Assembly (NCBI RefSeq): GCF_035917415.1
Contig: NZ_CP109073.1
Location: 2,874,501-2,938,500 of the forward strand
Direction: 5' to 3'
DNA length: 64,000 nucleotides
DNA from: Streptomyces sp. NBC_01803
GTDB lineage: Bacteria; Actinomycetota; Actinomycetes; Streptomycetales; Streptomycetaceae
In this document: piece after piece, positions 4,580 through 29,181 of the stretch
Position numbering within the stretch: position 1 is the first letter of the stretch
Layout: the number at the start of each line of letters is the position of its first letter
Program-made: the position numbers and the translations under genes
The notes under the pieces: generated by a model
What the model was told of the DNA's origin: nothing
The model's input: only the letters and a program-made list of their open reading frames with translations
Database searches by the model: none

Positions 4580-6178
4580 TCAGGCGGCGAGGGCGGAGGG
4601 GATGCGTTCGAGAACGCTGGAGACGCGCTTCAGCGCCTGGAGGTCAGCGACTTCGCCGGCGGTGGCGTCGGGCGGGACGGCGATGCGGTGGTACCGGCAC
4701 CAGGCCCGTTGCTTGCCGCTCGGCGGCCTCTCCCTCCAGTTCGCCGAGCGCTGGACGAACGCGGGCGGCGCGAGCTGCCGGGCCTGCTTCTCCGTCCACT
4801 GCATGGCGAACTGGAGCGACGTCTCCAGATCGGGGTTCGGGGCCCGGACGCCTTGGCCGACGTCCCACCTCCGCACCCGGTACATCCCGGGGGTGGCGCC
4901 GCGGATCAGGAAGAGGAACAGCTCGTTGGTGAGCGGGACGAACCAGGTGCCGCTGTCGGTGCGCAGCCAGCGCACGGGCGAGTTGTGGAAGAGGTCGACG
5001 TCCTCCCAGTCGACCTCGCCGAGCGGCTGGTCGGAGGCTTCGGCGTCGGCTGCCTCGCCGAGGGTCCGCCCTTCCTCGACGTCGGCGATCTCCCGCCCGG
5101 TCAGGTCGACGATCGAGGCGAGCTTGTGGCGGGTGGAGGCGCCCATGACGTCGAGGATCAGCGCGTCCTTCTTGCCCTCCCACATCCGCAGCCCGCGGCC
5201 GGCCATCTGGCAGTACAGGCCCGGGGACTTCGTCGGCCGGGCTATGACGACGCACGACGTCCAGGGGGCGTCGAACCCTTCGGTGAGCACCGCGCAGTTC
5301 GTGAGGACCTGGATGTCCCCGGCCTCGTACCACTTCAGGACGGTGGCGCGGCTCTCCTTCGGCATGTCGCCCCAGACAGTGGCCGCGCGTATCCCGGCGT
5401 CGTTCAGGGCGTCGGCCATGGACTGGGCCGTGGCCACGGTGGGGGTGAAGACGACACCGGGCCGGTCGGCGGCGTACTGCTTGTAGGCGCCGGCGACGAC
5501 GCCGGCGGCTCCGGAGTCGTCGAGGGCCTGGGCGAGCTGCCCGTCCTGGAGATCGCCCGCGCGGGTCTTGACCTTGTCGAGGTTGAGGCCCTGGACGACG
5601 ACGCGCTTGCCGCGGACGTCGACGAGGTACTCGGGGATCATGTCGAGGATGTCGAGGGTGAAGACGACCTCTTCCCAGACGTCGGCGAGGCCGCCGTCCT
5701 GCCGGGTCATGGTGGCGGTGAAGCCGGCGGTGGGGATGCCGCGCCAGGCGCCGAAGTGCTCCAGGACGGTCATGTAGGTGGGGGCGGCGGCGTGGTGGCA
5801 CTCGTCGACGATGATCAGGCCGATGTCGCGGATGGCTTCACGGCGCTTGCGGACGGCGAGGGTCTGGATGCTGGCGACGATGACGTCGGCGTCGTGGTGC
5901 TCGTCGCGTTCGGCTTTGACGATGCCGACGCGGAGTCCGGGGGCGACGGCGCGGATCTTGTCGGCGGCCTGCTGGATGAGTTCCTCGCGGTGGGCGATGA
6001 CGAGGGCGCGGCGGCCGTTGAGCGCGGCGAGGATCGCGAGGATCAGGTTGGCGAAGACGACGGTCTTGCCGGCGCCGGTGGGCAGGACGACTGCCAGGCG
6101 GTTGTGGGGGCCCTTCCAGCCGTTGGTGAGCGCGTTGATGGCCTCGGTCTGGTAGGGGCGCGGGGTGAATGCGGGCAT
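4580..6178 (-). CDS. Phage superfamily II DNA helicase (DECH box)
   Basis: A 532-residue ATP-dependent helicase. Motif I PTGAGKT lies at 33-39, the DECH box at 124-127, TAT motif III near 153-155 and motif VI QMAGRGLR at 323-330, so both RecA-like domains are complete. It resembles the phage UvsW/RadD-like helicases that remodel forks and recombination intermediates. The ATG at 6178 is preferred; a longer frame reaches 6271 but runs into the repeat-rich intergenic region. It is the first gene downstream of the GTACGC repeat cluster and heads the coupled genes that follow. Confidence 0.9.
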   Translation of the reverse strand: MPAFTPRPYQTEAINALTNGWKGPHNRLAVVLPTGAGKTVVFANLILAILAALNGRRALVIAHREELIQQAADKIRAVAPGLRVGIVKAERDEHHDADVIVASIQTLAVRKRREAIRDIGLIIVDECHHAAAPTYMTVLEHFGAWRGIPTAGFTATMTRQDGGLADVWEEVVFTLDILDMIPEYLVDVRGKRVVVQGLNLDKVKTRAGDLQDGQLAQALDDSGAAGVVAGAYKQYAADRPGVVFTPTVATAQSMADALNDAGIRAATVWGDMPKESRATVLKWYEAGDIQVLTNCAVLTEGFDAPWTSCVVIARPTKSPGLYCQMAGRGLRMWEGKKDALILDVMGASTRHKLASIVDLTGREIADVEEGRTLGEAADAEASDQPLGEVDWEDVDLFHNSPVRWLRTDSGTWFVPLTNELFLFLIRGATPGMYRVRRWDVGQGVRAPNPDLETSLQFAMQWTEKQARQLAPPAFVQRSANWRERPPSGKQRAWCRYHRIAVPPDATAGEVADLQALKRVSSVLERIPSALAA

Positions 6179-6224: not shown

Positions 6225-6497
6225 GGTACGCGGTGCGTACCGCTGCGTACCGGGTGCGTACCAGGGGCCATAAAGGCTTTGACCTGCTATTTCTCTTAGA
6301 AATAGAGGGGTGGTACGCAAGGTACGCAGAAACAGACCCCTAGATACGTGTGCGCACACGCGCACGCGCACGCCCACACACGCACGCCCGAGGGGTGTCT
6401 GTTCGGTGCCAGTGCGTACCGCGTACCGGCCCCCCTCTACAGGGGGTGTGACCTGCTGAAACGCTCTCCGAAGGGTGGTACGCGCCGACTGCGTACC
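6225..6497. repeat. Iteron-like cluster of GCGTACC / GGTACGC heptamers
   Basis: Ten exact copies of a 7-bp word occur in 273 bp. In GGTACGC orientation they start at 6225, 6312, 6321 and 6477. In GCGTACC orientation they start at 6235, 6245, 6256, 6414, 6421 and 6491. Three neighbours are spaced 10 and 11 bp apart, one helical turn. The array fills the gap between the primase-helicase and DECH-helicase genes and surrounds an AT-rich patch. Such geometry is typical of replication origins bound by an initiator, or of multimeric operators. Which protein binds cannot be told. Confidence 0.8.
6287..6305. promoter_or_regulatory. Perfect AT-rich palindrome
   Basis: Eight-base arms CTATTTCT and AGAAATAG flank the 3-nt spacer CTT. 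It is strikingly AT-rich for this genome and sits at the centre of the heptamer cluster, between the left group (6225-6262) and the pair at 6312-6327. It could be an operator for a dimeric regulator or a cruciform/unwinding element. Confidence 0.6.
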
Positions 6498-6517: not shown

Positions 6518-9500
6518 TCACGCCGCCCCCACCCGGTCGTAGCCGAAGGTGATGCCCTCCGGGGTGAAGGACAGGCACTTCGCGCGGGTGCCGTCGAAGC
6601 GCTTGGGGATCAGGTGCGGGGGACGCTGTGAGGGCAGGACGTCGAGGTACCCGGCGTCGATCCAGCTGCCGACCACGGCATCCAGGGAGTAACCGGAGTC
6701 GGCGAGGATCTTCCGCACGCGCTCGGGGAGGAGGGCGACCTTCCGGCCCTTCTCCGCCTCGGTGATGACGCCGAGCCAGCCCTGGAACGGCGGCCGGTCG
6801 TCGGCGTCCCGCTGCGGGGTCCACAGTTCCCAGCTGTGGGCGGCGACGTACTCGCGGACCACGTCCATGGCCATCTCGGGCCGGTTGTCGGTGGGGCTGT
6901 GCGCGGCGAACATCGCCTGCCAGCGTGCGGCGGGCAGCGGCTCGTAGGGCAGCAGGCCCATGCCGCACGCGAGGATCTCGGCGAGGGCGAGGATGGCGAC
7001 CATCGGGGCGCGGCGGCCGGTCATGTCGCTCTCGCCGCGGAACGTCTCGGCGAGGTCCTGGTGGCGCTGCTTCAGGGCGTCCCGGCCGCCGGGTGCGGCG
7101 AGCCTGGGGATGATGAACTCGACGAACGCCGGTCCGGCGTGGCCGTAGTTCTCGAAGACGCCTTCGCGGGCTTGGACGGCGACCCGGCCGCCGTTCTCTC
7201 CGAAGGGCGGGATGGTCGTGCCGAGGATGCGGGCGGCGGCGCCCTGGGCGGTGGTGAAGGACAGCGCGGGCCGCTCGCCGGAGGACAGGAGGATCGTCTC
7301 CCAGGGCAGCATGGTGCCGAACGCGCCGCCCGAGCGTGCCTTGCCGTGGTTCATCGGCAGCTGGTAGAGGACCTCGTCGATGATGGCCTCGTCCGTGACG
7401 GCCATGGTCTCGTCGAAGACGGTGACGATGCCGCGCACCAGGTTGAGCCGCTTCTCGATCGCGTACAGGGTGGTGCGCCAGTTCGACATGGCGTTGGCGT
7501 GCTCGCTGGGGTTGGCCCAGCAGCTCAAAGAGCACTGCAACGAGGTGGTCTTGCCCTTGGTACTGCGCGAGGAGATGTCGAGGGTGAAGGAAGGCAGGCC
7601 GAGGGGGCGAAGGAGCGGCGCGGCCAGGGCGGCGGCGATGGCTATACGCGGCACGGGGAACGGTTCGAGGAGGGCGACGGTCTCCTTCCAGCCTTCCAGG
7701 GTGCCCTTGCGGCCGTGGGCCTTGGCCGGGCCGCGCATCTCTTCGTAGACGACGTCGACCTTGGTGCCGTCCTCCGGTGAGGAGACGAAACTCCCGTCGT
7801 CCTGCCAGCCGAGCCAGCGGGCGAGCTTCTCGCTCGGGATGTTCTTGCCGTCGGCGTTGGCGGCCTCGAACTCGGCGAGCCAGCGTTCCAGGACGCGGGC
7901 GTCGCCCTCGACGGCGGGCAGGCCGCCACCGCCGAGCTGCTCGATCAGCTTCCGGCCGCGCTTGGCCGTCTCGCGGGAGACGATGCGGGAGATCTTCCGC
8001 TCGAACGGCATCGTACGGTCGATCCACGACAGCTCGATGTACTGCTCCCCTTCGGGGTCCTCGAAGGTGGCCGTGATGACGAGGGGGGCGAACGCGAAAC
8101 GGACCCAGACCTCTTCCTTGCCGACCGGCCGCAGGATCGCGACGCCGGTGTCCTTGATGCGGTAGCCCCGTGGGGTCTTCGTCTTGGCGGGCAGGCCGAA
8201 GACCTTGGCGTAGTCGAACGGCTTGGCCGCGTCCGGCGGCGCGTCCTCCCCACTCTCGGGCTGGGGCTGGGGCTCGGGATCGGCGGCCGGGTCGAGCGCG
8301 GCCGTGCCCTCGACCGGCGGGACGGATCGAAGGTGCTGCCCCCGCCCCACACCGCGTGCCGTCTTGATCTCCGCGAGGGCGGCGGCGGGCAGGGCGCGCG
8401 CGGCCGGGGTGGCCTCGGGGTGGCCGTCCGCCGCACGGCGGATGTCACGGGCAGCGGCGGACTGGTCGCCGCGGTGGTGGATCGCGGCGAACAACTGGCC
8501 GGGCGAGAGCACGTGGTTGAGCGACCCGGGGTCGAAGCCGGGGAAGTTGTCGGTGCGCACGGTGGCGGCGAAGCCGCCCTTGTGCACGGCGATGCCGTCG
8601 ACCGAGTTGCCCTCGCCCCAACCGGGCCGCAGCCAGCGCTGGCAGTCGCCGCCGCAACCGGGCAGAGAGCAGCTTCCGGGGTATTGCTCGCGGTAGGTCG
8701 CGCCGGCGAACTCCAGGATCTCGCCGCAGCAGGCGTGATCGCCGAGGATCTGCAACGGCCCGGGGCCGTCGTGAGTCCGGCCGCTGGCGGCGGCGCGCTG
8801 GGGCCGGTCGGACTTCGGCGGCGGCGTGCGCTTGGGCGGGGCGGGCTTCAGCTCGGCCGCCAGGCGCAGCAGCTCGTCCAGGGGGTACCGCGGCCCGGCC
8901 GTCTCGGTGACGACGCGGGCCATGACCGGCATGCGGCCGACCTTCCGGTTGATGGTCCCGGGCAGGCGCAGGACGCGCGCCAGGTCCTTCACGCCGGTGC
9001 CGTAGCCGACGCCCATCTTCTTGGCGCCCGCAGCCAGGATGTTCTGCCAGTCGGCAGCCAGCTGGACGGCAGCGTCGAAGTCGATGTCCTCGCCGATGAC
9101 GACGGGCGCGGAGAGGATCCAGCGGGCGTAGAGCCCGCCGCCGGAGTGCTCCACGCGGCTCGGCGAGGGGAGGCGCGCGAACTTGGCGATATCGATGGCC
9201 TCGCGCTCGTCCTTGGGCAGGCCGGCCGTCTTGTGGCCGTCGTCGCCGAAGTCGAGGTCCGACCACATGTCGAGCAGGGCGTGGGAGTCGCGGGCGGCGC
9301 CGCGGGACCCGGCGGCGAGCCGCTCCTTGACGGTGGTGACGCGGGTGTAGATGCCTTCGACGCCCGCGCGGTCCTCGGTCATCGCCCACTGGACGGCGGT
9401 ATCGAGGTTGTCGGTCTGGATGCCCGTCCAGTTCCGGGTGGAGCAGAGCGCGATGAGACCCGGGGCGGTGCCGAAGTGCGAGGTGAGCCAGGCCCGGACG

Positions 9501-9541
9501 ATCTCCGGGTCTGCGGTCAGCGGCTCGGGGGTGGTGTTCAC
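6518..9541 (-). CDS. Phage DNA primase-helicase (primase-polymerase N-terminus, DUF927 helicase)
   Basis: A 1007-residue multidomain replication protein from the GTG at 9541. The N-terminal 220 residues look like an archaeo-eukaryotic primase-polymerase: DLDFG at 95-99 for metal binding and SGGGLYARW at 133-141. Residues 269-300 hold a Cys cluster (ACCGE, CSLPGCGGDC) that may bind zinc. After a Pro-rich linker near 410-440 comes a DUF927-type ATPase/helicase module with Walker A SRSTKGKTT near 658-666 and Walker B TVFDE near 707-711. The fused enzyme would prime and unwind phage DNA. It lies immediately beside the heptamer cluster, its probable site of action. The long upstream frame to 10195 is spurious. 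Confidence 0.88.
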   Translation of the reverse strand: MNTTPEPLTADPEIVRAWLTSHFGTAPGLIALCSTRNWTGIQTDNLDTAVQWAMTEDRAGVEGIYTRVTTVKERLAAGSRGAARDSHALLDMWSDLDFGDDGHKTAGLPKDEREAIDIAKFARLPSPSRVEHSGGGLYARWILSAPVVIGEDIDFDAAVQLAADWQNILAAGAKKMGVGYGTGVKDLARVLRLPGTINRKVGRMPVMARVVTETAGPRYPLDELLRLAAELKPAPPKRTPPPKSDRPQRAAASGRTHDGPGPLQILGDHACCGEILEFAGATYREQYPGSCSLPGCGGDCQRWLRPGWGEGNSVDGIAVHKGGFAATVRTDNFPGFDPGSLNHVLSPGQLFAAIHHRGDQSAAARDIRRAADGHPEATPAARALPAAALAEIKTARGVGRGQHLRSVPPVEGTAALDPAADPEPQPQPESGEDAPPDAAKPFDYAKVFGLPAKTKTPRGYRIKDTGVAILRPVGKEEVWVRFAFAPLVITATFEDPEGEQYIELSWIDRTMPFERKISRIVSRETAKRGRKLIEQLGGGGLPAVEGDARVLERWLAEFEAANADGKNIPSEKLARWLGWQDDGSFVSSPEDGTKVDVVYEEMRGPAKAHGRKGTLEGWKETVALLEPFPVPRIAIAAALAAPLLRPLGLPSFTLDISSRSTKGKTTSLQCSLSCWANPSEHANAMSNWRTTLYAIEKRLNLVRGIVTVFDETMAVTDEAIIDEVLYQLPMNHGKARSGGAFGTMLPWETILLSSGERPALSFTTAQGAAARILGTTIPPFGENGGRVAVQAREGVFENYGHAGPAFVEFIIPRLAAPGGRDALKQRHQDLAETFRGESDMTGRRAPMVAILALAEILACGMGLLPYEPLPAARWQAMFAAHSPTDNRPEMAMDVVREYVAAHSWELWTPQRDADDRPPFQGWLGVITEAEKGRKVALLPERVRKILADSGYSLDAVVGSWIDAGYLDVLPSQRPPHLIPKRFDGTRAKCLSFTPEGITFGYDRVGAA

Positions 9542-15339: not shown

Positions 15340-15415
15340 CGGGCAGATGAGATGACCGCGATTCGGTAGGCCGTGTGGGACTCGAACCCACAACCAAAGG
15401 ATTAAAAGTCCTCTG
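15340..15415. other. Predicted prophage attachment site (att) region
   Basis: Inference from layout: the integrase ends just before the 3' end of tRNA-Lys. In tyrosine integrase systems the crossover core normally overlaps the T-arm to anticodon-arm part of the tRNA 3' half, here about 15367-15405. The other junction lies left of the window and cannot be compared, so the exact core is unknown. Confidence 0.55.
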
Positions 15416-15439
15416 CTCTGCCAATTGAGCTAACGGCCC
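15367..15439 (-). tRNA. tRNA-Lys(UUU)
   Basis: A 73-nt cloverleaf on the minus strand. The acceptor arms GGGCCGT and ACGGCCT pair with one G-U, and the T-loop region is GGGTTCGAGTCCC. The anticodon loop CTTTTAA reads AAA/AAG lysine codons. CCA is not encoded. Its 3' end points at the integrase gene, so the 3' half of this tRNA is the likely attB/attR core of the prophage. Confidence 0.95.
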
Positions 15440-27498: not shown

Positions 27499-29181
27499 GT
27501 GTCCGACGCCGGACGCCGGAAGAGGGCATCCGTGCTGGCCGTGACGTGTCTCGGCCAGTTCATGGTGCTGCTGGACAACACCATCGTCATGACCGCGCTC
27601 CCGGACATGCAGCGGGACCTCTCCACCCCCCTGACCGGCCTGCAGTGGATCGTCGACTCCTACGTCCTGGCGCTGGCCGTCCTGCTGCTGACCGGCGGAG
27701 CGATCGGCGATCGCTACGGCAGGAAGCGGCTGTTCCTCGCCGGACTGGCAGTCTTCACCTGCGCCTCCGTGCTGTGCGGGCTGGCCGGCGGCACGGGCTG
27801 GCTTATCGCCGCGCGCGCACTCCAGGGCGCCGGGGCCGCCGCGCTCAGCCCGGGCAGCCTGTCGCTGCTCGCCTCCGCCTACACCGAGCCGCGCGAGCGG
27901 GCCCGCGCGATCGGGCTGTGGGCGGGGATCAGCGGCTTCGGTCTCTCGGCCGGACCGCTGCTCGGCGGGGCGCTGGTCGACTCCTTCGGCTGGCAGGCGG
28001 TCTTCCTGGTGAACCTGCCGGTCGGCCTCCTCACGCTGGTGCTCGGACTGAGGGTGTTGGACGAGTCCCGCGCCCCCCGCCGGCGCGGGCTGGACCCGCC
28101 GGGCATGCTCCTGGCGACGGCCTGTGTCGGGACGCTGACCTTCGGGCTGATCAACGCGGGCGACGAGGGCTGGTCCTCGGGCACGACCACGGGCTGCCTG
28201 GGCGCGGCGGCGGTGCTGCTGGCCGCGTTCGTGATCGCGCAGGCCCGCTCGCCGGAGCCGATGCTGCCGCTCGGGCTGTTCGGAGAGCGGCTGTTCACCG
28301 TGTCCCACACCGCCATCCTCGGCGTCGGGTTCGGTCTGCTGGGCACCACCTTCTTCTTCTCGCAGTTCTTCCAAATGGTGCAGGGCTGCTCGGCGTTCGA
28401 CGCCGGGGTGCGGACGCTGCCCACCACGGCCGGGATCCTGGTGTGCGGCCCCCTGGCCGGGCGCCTGGCCGCCCGGTACGGCTACCGGCTGCCGGTGACC
28501 GCCGGCCTGCTGTCCGCCGGGGCCGGCCTGACCGCCCTCGGTGCCGTGCACGGCGACAGCGCGTACGGCGCGGTGTGGTGGCGGCTGGCCCTGGTCGGCC
28601 TCGGATTCGGGCTGGCGCTGTCGCCGCTCACCGCCGCCGCGGTCGCGTCCGTGCCCCGGGAGCGCAGTGGTCTGGCTTCCGGCACCAGCAACACCGGCCG
28701 CCAGCTCGGAGCCGTGCTCGGCGTCGCCGTGCTGGGCGCCCTCGTGCACGCCCGGCAGGCCGATGGCATCGCGGACCGGCTCAACGGCCTGGGACTGGCG
28801 CCGGAGGCGCGGGCCGCCGCCATCGAGGCGCTGTCCTCCGGTGGCGGACTCGCGCCCGCGGAATCCGTGCCCGGGCTGTCCACCGCCGCCCAACGCCTCG
28901 TCGTCGGCGGCGCGTTCACCGACGCGCTCAACGTGGCCTTCCTCACCGCGGGCGTCGTCATGCTGGCCCTCGCGACCCTCGCCGCGCTGGGCCTCACCCG
29001 CTCCACACCGCAGGCCACCCGGACCGCCCCGGGCCCCGACGCCCCCGACGCCCCCGACGCCCCCGACGCCCCCGACGCCCCCGACGCCCCCGACGCCCCC
29101 GACGCCCCCGACGCCCCCGACGCCCCCGGCGCCCCCGACGCCCCGCACGAGACCACGCCCGCCGGACCGGGCCGCCCGTGA
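27499..29181 (+). CDS. MFS drug exporter, DHA2 (14-helix) type
   Basis: A 560-residue proton-driven efflux transporter. The DHA2 markers are present: LDNTIVMTALPDM near 24-36, motif A GAIGDRYGRKRLF near 67-79, and motif C ISGFGLSAGPLLGGAL near 144-159. Fourteen transmembrane segments can be traced. The cytoplasmic C-terminus ends in about ten PDA triplets encoded by a 9-bp tandem repeat, unlikely to be folded. With the upstream PadR gene it forms a classic regulator-exporter pair. Confidence 0.92.
   Translation: MSDAGRRKRASVLAVTCLGQFMVLLDNTIVMTALPDMQRDLSTPLTGLQWIVDSYVLALAVLLLTGGAIGDRYGRKRLFLAGLAVFTCASVLCGLAGGTGWLIAARALQGAGAAALSPGSLSLLASAYTEPRERARAIGLWAGISGFGLSAGPLLGGALVDSFGWQAVFLVNLPVGLLTLVLGLRVLDESRAPRRRGLDPPGMLLATACVGTLTFGLINAGDEGWSSGTTTGCLGAAAVLLAAFVIAQARSPEPMLPLGLFGERLFTVSHTAILGVGFGLLGTTFFFSQFFQMVQGCSAFDAGVRTLPTTAGILVCGPLAGRLAARYGYRLPVTAGLLSAGAGLTALGAVHGDSAYGAVWWRLALVGLGFGLALSPLTAAAVASVPRERSGLASGTSNTGRQLGAVLGVAVLGALVHARQADGIADRLNGLGLAPEARAAAIEALSSGGGLAPAESVPGLSTAAQRLVVGGAFTDALNVAFLTAGVVMLALATLAALGLTRSTPQATRTAPGPDAPDAPDAPDAPDAPDAPDAPDAPDAPDAPGAPDAPHETTPAGPGRP
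29035..29148 (+). repeat. 9-bp tandem repeat GCCCCCGAC in the MFS C-terminus
   Basis: About eleven near-perfect copies encode Ala-Pro-Asp repeats; one unit is changed to GGC. The unit length keeps the frame, so copy number can vary without inactivating the transporter. Confidence 0.9.

What the first reader, a model, noticed from the sequence alone, without database searches (positions are those of the whole stretch)
6225..6497. Ten-copy GCGTACC/GGTACGC heptamer cluster between phage helicase genes
Ten exact copies of a 7-bp word lie in 273 bp in both orientations, three of them phased at 10 and 11 bp. For this base composition well under one copy would be expected by chance. The array surrounds an AT-rich patch and lies exactly between the primase-helicase and DECH-helicase genes. 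I propose it is the phage replication origin with initiator iterons, or a cooperative master operator of the early region. I do not know of a described element with this repeat.
Basis: partly seen in the sequence, partly recalled or inferred. Interest (0 to 1): 0.78.

Follow-up and report, generated by a model that had tools for sequence, protein, structure and literature searches.

The report
Swappable replication origin of Streptomyces prophages
The cluster of ten short repeats is very probably the DNA replication start site of a virus dormant in a Streptomyces chromosome, and related viruses carry it together with the matching start protein as an exchangeable cassette whose repeat word differs from group to group.

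The parts
6225..6497 (.). Iteron array: ten exact TGCGTACC-type sites (GCGTACC core)
   Evidence: same layout in 17 aligned relatives
6225..6262 (.). Set of four iterons (starts spaced 10, 10, 11 bp) on one side of the AT-rich patch
   Evidence: spaced 11, 11, 10 bp in most relatives
6267..6309 (.). AT-rich patch, candidate melting element (40-mers of 0.38 GC, lowest of the prophage); holds an inverted repeat CTATTTCT-CTT-AGAAATAG at 6287-6305
   Evidence: the hairpin sequence is not conserved in relatives
6312..6327 (-). Pair of iterons on the other side of the AT-rich patch
6345..6388 (.). GT/GC-rich, largely alternating purine-pyrimidine tract, similar in kind but not identical in class-A relatives
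   Evidence: read from the alignment, not scored
6414..6427 (+). Further pair of iterons (one site only in the 17 aligned relatives)
6477..6497 (.). Inverted pair of iterons 20 bp after the initiator stop; three flanking base pairs also match in the window
6280..6286 (-). CAGGTCA, second conserved motif, copy 1
6449..6455 (-). CAGGTCA, second conserved motif, copy 2
6518..9541 (-). Initiator: primase-like N-terminal region fused to a DUF927 (SaPIbov1 Rep/Cch-type) helicase with a predicted C-terminal winged helix (residues about 872-990, counted from the codon at 9517)
   Evidence: phrog_2478 primase 3.3e-10; PF06048 4.8e-33 and PF18662 0.0011, the latter below cut-off; PDB profile 8tch and 5dgk only; model. 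GTG at 9541 is my choice of start
4580..6178 (-). DEAD/DEAH-box (RadD-like) helicase, right neighbour of the cassette
   Evidence: PF04851/PF00270, phrog_16, NF053632 6.5e-49 below cut-off
15366..15413 (.). One attachment-site copy of the prophage, in tRNA-Lys (15365-15439, -); 48-bp direct repeat of a copy that starts 40,139 bp upstream, outside the window

Best explanation
The array is the replication origin of an apparently complete temperate Streptomyces phage. Shown by sequence: a nearly fixed set of 8-10 TGCGTACC sites directly 3' of an initiator gene, surrounding an AT-rich patch, kept in all fetched relatives with this initiator module and replaced as a unit where the initiator is a different one. 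Inferred: after induction or infection the DUF927 protein binds the sites through its C-terminal winged helix, assembles as a helicase ring or rings, melts the AT-rich patch, loads itself without a host loader, and its fused primase-like N-terminal region primes. The neighbouring DEAD helicase is an accessory outside the specificity unit.
Against: No experiment. GC skew has no turning point at the array. The lowest-GC 40-mer of a locus lies in the array in only 12 of 53 loci; the array minimum has a median rank in the lowest 0.2-0.5% by class, the worst about 2%. Initiator and array are adjacent, so joint exchange is partly expected from linkage; and initiator class is itself clustered on the DEAD-helicase tree (0 of 200 shuffles as low), a quick tree without bootstrap. 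Three other genomes carry the double-site pattern with 2-3 clustered sites and no relative of the initiator in about 10 kb. The model is middling (pLDDT 68, pTM 0.52) and PF18662 is below its cut-off. An added role in regulating the DEAD helicase gene is not excluded.
Confidence: 0.86

Rival explanations
1. Cooperative operator: a repressor or antirepressor binds the sites and controls the DEAD-helicase gene and those after it.
For: The array lies in the leader of the DEAD helicase gene and ends 46 bp before its start; HTH and Ant proteins are encoded nearby.
Against: Ant and HTH12521 have no homologue in the 23 array-bearing loci held, though some hold little upstream DNA; no second cluster in the prophage; L018 keeps the array without the DEAD helicase; no sigma-70-like promoter found, in a scan that does not cover other types; the word follows the initiator.
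Confidence: 0.06
2. Dual-use array: origin and, besides, a control site through which the initiator regulates transcription, as known for iteron plasmids (recalled). Overlaps with the best explanation.
For: The array is the leader of the next gene.
Against: It lies 3' of the initiator gene, not at its promoter, so it could only regulate downstream genes; no direct evidence either way.
Confidence: 0.2
3. Array read by a host protein, or a packaging or partition site.
For: CAGSTCA, a second motif, is shared by arrays of different initiator classes and could have a host or shared reader.
Against: The main word differs between prophages of the same genus and follows the initiator; the terminase gene fragment ends about 6 kb away, at window coordinate -102.
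Confidence: 0.03
4. RNA element or terminator of the primase-helicase transcript.
For: The first inverted pair can form a hairpin; its outer pairs change on both sides in L019 and L023.
Against: No Rfam match up to E 1, no terminator-like site; the direct phased repeats need no RNA pairing.
Confidence: 0.02

Closest known systems
SaPIbov1 Rep and its origin; PICI pri-rep-ori replicons
   Same: DUF927-type self-loading helicase whose C-terminal domain recognises an origin of iterons directly downstream; sets of iterons around an AT-rich region; primase sometimes fused (passages of PMC7581432; PMC6092414; sequence and fold)
   Different: Here the element is a prophage with its own structural genes, in Streptomyces; a DEAD helicase follows; several iteron words circulate in the same slot
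SCCmec Cch (DUF927)
   Different: 32.9 bits against a cut-off of 700, so no Cch orthologue; here fused to a primase-like region
Vibrio PLE RepA and origin modules
   Same: Initiator DNA-binding domain and origin iterons vary together and are exchanged as modules (passages of PMC8263062)
   Different: RepA_N initiator with three ~30-bp iterons, in a satellite (same passages); proteins not compared here
Phage P4 alpha protein with ori/crr
   Same: Primase-helicase-initiator in one protein with iterons (recalled, not tested)
   Different: Sites and helicase family not compared here
Mycobacteriophage stoperators
   Same: Many short asymmetric phage sites (recalled)
   Different: Those are dispersed over the genome (recalled); these are one cluster

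Membership tests
SaPI/PICI-type pri-rep-ori replicon | Initiator helicase of the SaPIbov1 Rep/DUF927 family | tested here: met
SaPI/PICI-type pri-rep-ori replicon | C-terminal DNA-binding (winged-helix) domain that recognises the iterons | tested here: inconclusive
SaPI/PICI-type pri-rep-ori replicon | Origin directly 3' of the initiator gene, made of short iterons | tested here: met
   First site 20 bp after the stop; same in relatives. Met as to position and repeats; origin activity not tested
SaPI/PICI-type pri-rep-ori replicon | Iteron sets on both sides of an AT-rich region | tested here: met
   6225-6262 | 6267-6309 | 6312-6497
SaPI/PICI-type pri-rep-ori replicon | Drives autonomous replication with its Rep | not testable with these tools
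   Needs a bench assay
PICI (the element) | Satellite depending on a helper phage, without a full set of structural genes | tested here: not met
   Terminase, portal, protease, major head, major tail, tape measure and endolysin families matched in the same prophage; helper dependence itself not tested
SCCmec Cch1 | NCBIfam equivalog NF047345 | tested here: not met
   32.9 bits against a cut-off of 700
Dispersed phage operators (stoperators) | Sites spread over the phage genome | tested here: not met
   10 of 15 copies in one 273-bp cluster, the other 5 single
P4 alpha/ori/crr | Homologous initiator | not tested
   Recalled parallel only

The most novel reading that the evidence does not exclude
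Streptomyces temperate phages are divided into replication-specificity groups by repeated exchange of one cassette of roughly 2.1-2.5 kb (initiator helicase with its winged helix, plus array) between conserved flanks, and by concerted change of the sites of an array (GCGTACC to GCGTAACG; GCAGGGA to GCGGGGA). The exchange is driven by selection on origin specificity itself, such as escape from incompatibility with resident prophages or from origin-targeting parasites.
Probability: 0.3. Interest if true: 0.8.

Novelty: new variant of a known kind. Interest (0 to 1): 0.64.

Why it matters
[quoted passage not shown] Here a closely similar design stands in prophages with their own structural genes in Streptomyces, which bears on where satellites got their replicon. 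The family also gives natural pairs of reader and word: at least five words beside related DEAD helicases, two of them (classes A and A2) with alignable winged-helix domains, so how these helicases read origins becomes directly testable. My paper searches turned up no described origin for this prophage group; most subscription papers are outside that library.

Tried and rejected
Phage GenBank records gave nothing for the array DNA and 17 records with distant relatives of the initiator, all under 60% identity and none covering 80% of it. GC skew gave no origin signal. Rfam and terminator scans were empty. A search for stand-alone copies of the winged-helix domain (decoys or origin nucleases) found 4 proteins among 90 candidates, two named partial and all on contigs under 10 kb; none was followed up, and the search is not sensitive. 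PDB profiles of class B and C initiators gave nothing usable. CAGSTCA is in all 24 class A/A2/C arrays of the tree set but in only 7 of 29 class B arrays, so it is not universal. The hairpin 6287-6305 is not conserved. DEAD-helicase relatives at 54% identity or less had no array in the 550 bp upstream; one search looked at loci L036-L076 and L118-L130 only, not at L034, L035 and L077-L117. L025 and L027 (N-terminal relatives) have other repeated words, not placed; the other N-terminal relatives without the DEAD helicase (L026, L028, L029, L031) showed no clear array there. The genome-contig scan gave few relatives (5 of 91 stretches).

Rows left out of the 53-row tree: same contigs or taken as the same strain (L039, L040, L044, L045, L150, L154, L161, and L123, L127, L129, L131, L136, L177-L179), L018 (no helicase), L032 and L047 (cut), L165 (dropped by the script, helicase piece too short), and the distant helicases. 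Near copies remain (L164/L174, L143/L163, L014/L037, L155-L157), so counts of loci are not counts of independent events. The four pairs were chosen for high helicase identity across classes. Papers: passages read of PMC7581432, PMC6092414, PMC5862659, PMC8263062, PMC10111431; all others seen as search listings only. Ubeda 2007 is known only through those passages. GCGTACC/GGTACGC as a word in print: 1 unrelated paper. Streptomyces + prophage + DUF927: 0 papers; other searches.

Full report
WHAT IS THERE. The ten heptamers are exact and in the places given. They lie in the 339-bp gap between two minus-strand genes: the stop codon of a primase-helicase at 6518-6520 and the ATG of a DEAD-box helicase at 6178. 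Chance is excluded: local shuffles give 0.27 copies on average and at most 3 in 2,000, and no 7-mer of any kind exceeded 5 in 500. In the 5.85-Mb genome, same-orientation pairs with a gap of up to 30 bp occur at 7 places, 4 of them here. The core site is TGCGTACC (T 91% in 208 sites of 23 arrays).

WHERE IT LIES. A 48-bp direct repeat, one copy in tRNA-Lys (15366-15413) and one starting 40,139 bp upstream, bounds a prophage of about 40.2 kb. Ten proteins of the part outside the window were scanned; they match terminase, portal, protease, major head, major tail, tape measure and endolysin families, a regulator and two families of unknown function. The genus is Streptomyces by inference: genome G093, listed as same genus, has a contig of 8,270,461 bp, the length of the Streptomyces sp. 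WAC 01529 chromosome. The 40-mers starting at 6267-6270, inside the array, have the lowest GC of the prophage (0.38 against a mean of 0.71).

RELATIVES WITH THE SAME WORD (class A). One search gave 26 viral loci. In the 17 in which the DUF927 C-terminus and the DEAD helicase are both held next to each other, the gap is 333-363 bp and holds 8-10 exact words in nearly the same order and orientation, with diverged spacers. L018 has nine words without the DEAD helicase; five genome loci have 9-10. Across these 23 loci, some of them probably the same strain twice, the DUF927 module is present in 23, the DEAD helicase in 22, the window's N-terminal primase, Ant and HTH12521 in none (12 window genes or segments tested). 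A protein-independent scan of viral contigs for a double-site pattern returned 18 contigs, the same 18. In 392 genus genomes the pattern occurs in 5: this one, G093 with a full array, and three with only 2-3 clustered sites and no initiator relative in about 10 kb, one of them a short tandem before a membrane-protein ORF.

RELATIVES WITH OTHER WORDS. The DEAD helicase is a landmark. Upstream of homologues 61-76% identical to the window's stand arrays of other words. Class A2 (genome G070): the initiator aligns over residues 1-995 at 58%, yet GCGTACC is absent and GCGTAACG is repeated in a similar layout. Class B: another initiator, without a DUF927 match; 27 of 27 loci have arrays, 9 mainly of GCAGGGA and 18 of GCGGGGA or ACCCCGC; so do G082 and G198, while G167 mixes GCAGGAA with GCAGGGA. 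Class C: three loci with N-terminal primase and DEAD helicase related to the window's but another helicase ORF, words CGGTCCAG or GGGCCAG. Helicases at 54% identity or less had no array among the loci examined.

THE CASSETTE. Initiator family, assigned by sequence, agrees with the word in 53 of 53 rows; 36 arrays hold no word of another class, 16 one, one three. Within class B some arrays mix close variants of the word. On the DEAD-helicase tree the initiator family changes at least 10 times, and well-supported branches force 7 changes of the class-B label; the label is nevertheless clustered (quick tree). L046 (class B) has a DEAD helicase 97% identical to that of L012 (class A). L046 and L011 share 85% DNA identity over 5.5 kb up to position -2400 before the helicase, then one 82-bp piece at 77%, then nothing to the helicase start, and 93% from there for 2.8 kb; L046 against L012, and L166 against L013 and L019, show the same gap with identities of 74-95% in the flanks. 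In L046 the break falls after the Prim-Pol match of its initiator (residues 7-158). What was exchanged is the initiator helicase module plus the whole array; the upstream DNA and the DEAD helicase stayed. Physical linkage alone favours joint transfer, but no endpoint falls inside an array in these four pairs, and none of the 53 arrays is a hybrid of classes.

HOW IT WOULD WORK. PMC7581432 (passages) says that SaPI Rep recognises, with its C-terminal domain, an origin of iterons directly downstream of its gene, apparently as two hexamers, and that Cch (DUF927) is related to SaPIbov1 Rep. [quoted passage not shown] The window shows these structural features in a prophage with its own structural genes. 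Binding, melting, self-loading and priming here are inference. A second motif, CAGSTCA, occurs in 20 of 20 class A, 1 of 1 A2 and 3 of 3 class C arrays, usually twice, but in 7 of 29 class B arrays (mean 1.04 per array against 0.09 in shuffles); its reader is unknown.

AGAINST. No bench evidence; GC skew is silent; the lowest-GC 40-mer of the locus lies in the array in 12 of 53; the model is middling; A2 rests on one locus and C on three. An added regulatory role for the DEAD helicase gene is open.

VERDICT. Origin of replication with initiator iterons, confidence 0.86; design known from SaPI/PICI satellites, here in actinobacterial prophages with exchangeable specificity cassettes: a new variant of a known kind.

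Noticed in passing
window 8300-9541: The window's initiator looks chimeric: its N-terminal region is like those of class A2/C loci (61-63%), its C-terminal module like class A (71-74%), whose fetched members have another N-terminal region.
   Followed up: partly
window 6280-6286 and 6449-6455; class A, A2, C arrays: Second motif CAGSTCA, usually two copies per array, shared by classes with different iteron words; reader unknown.
   Followed up: partly
L018:6540-8040: Array-bearing locus without the DEAD helicase; the frame read in its place looks like a C5 DNA methyltransferase (motif recalled, not searched).
   Followed up: no
L025:7469-7846, L027:11527-11729: Elements sharing only the N-terminal primase carry other repeated words (GCGGAAC x12, CGGGTAC x7), possibly further origins.
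   Followed up: no
L046, L011, L012, L166, L013, L019, at about +1.6 and +2.6 to +2.8 kb from the DEAD helicase start: A ~75-80-bp DNA stretch recurs between these phages at different distances downstream of the DEAD helicase.
   Followed up: no
window 29034-29144: Tandem repeat, 9-bp unit CCCCGACGC x 12.3, outside the prophage.
   Followed up: no
G305:C32 near 30796 (L205:4786-4820): Short 11-bp tandem with three GGTACGC copies upstream of a membrane-protein-like ORF, no initiator relative nearby.
   Followed up: partly
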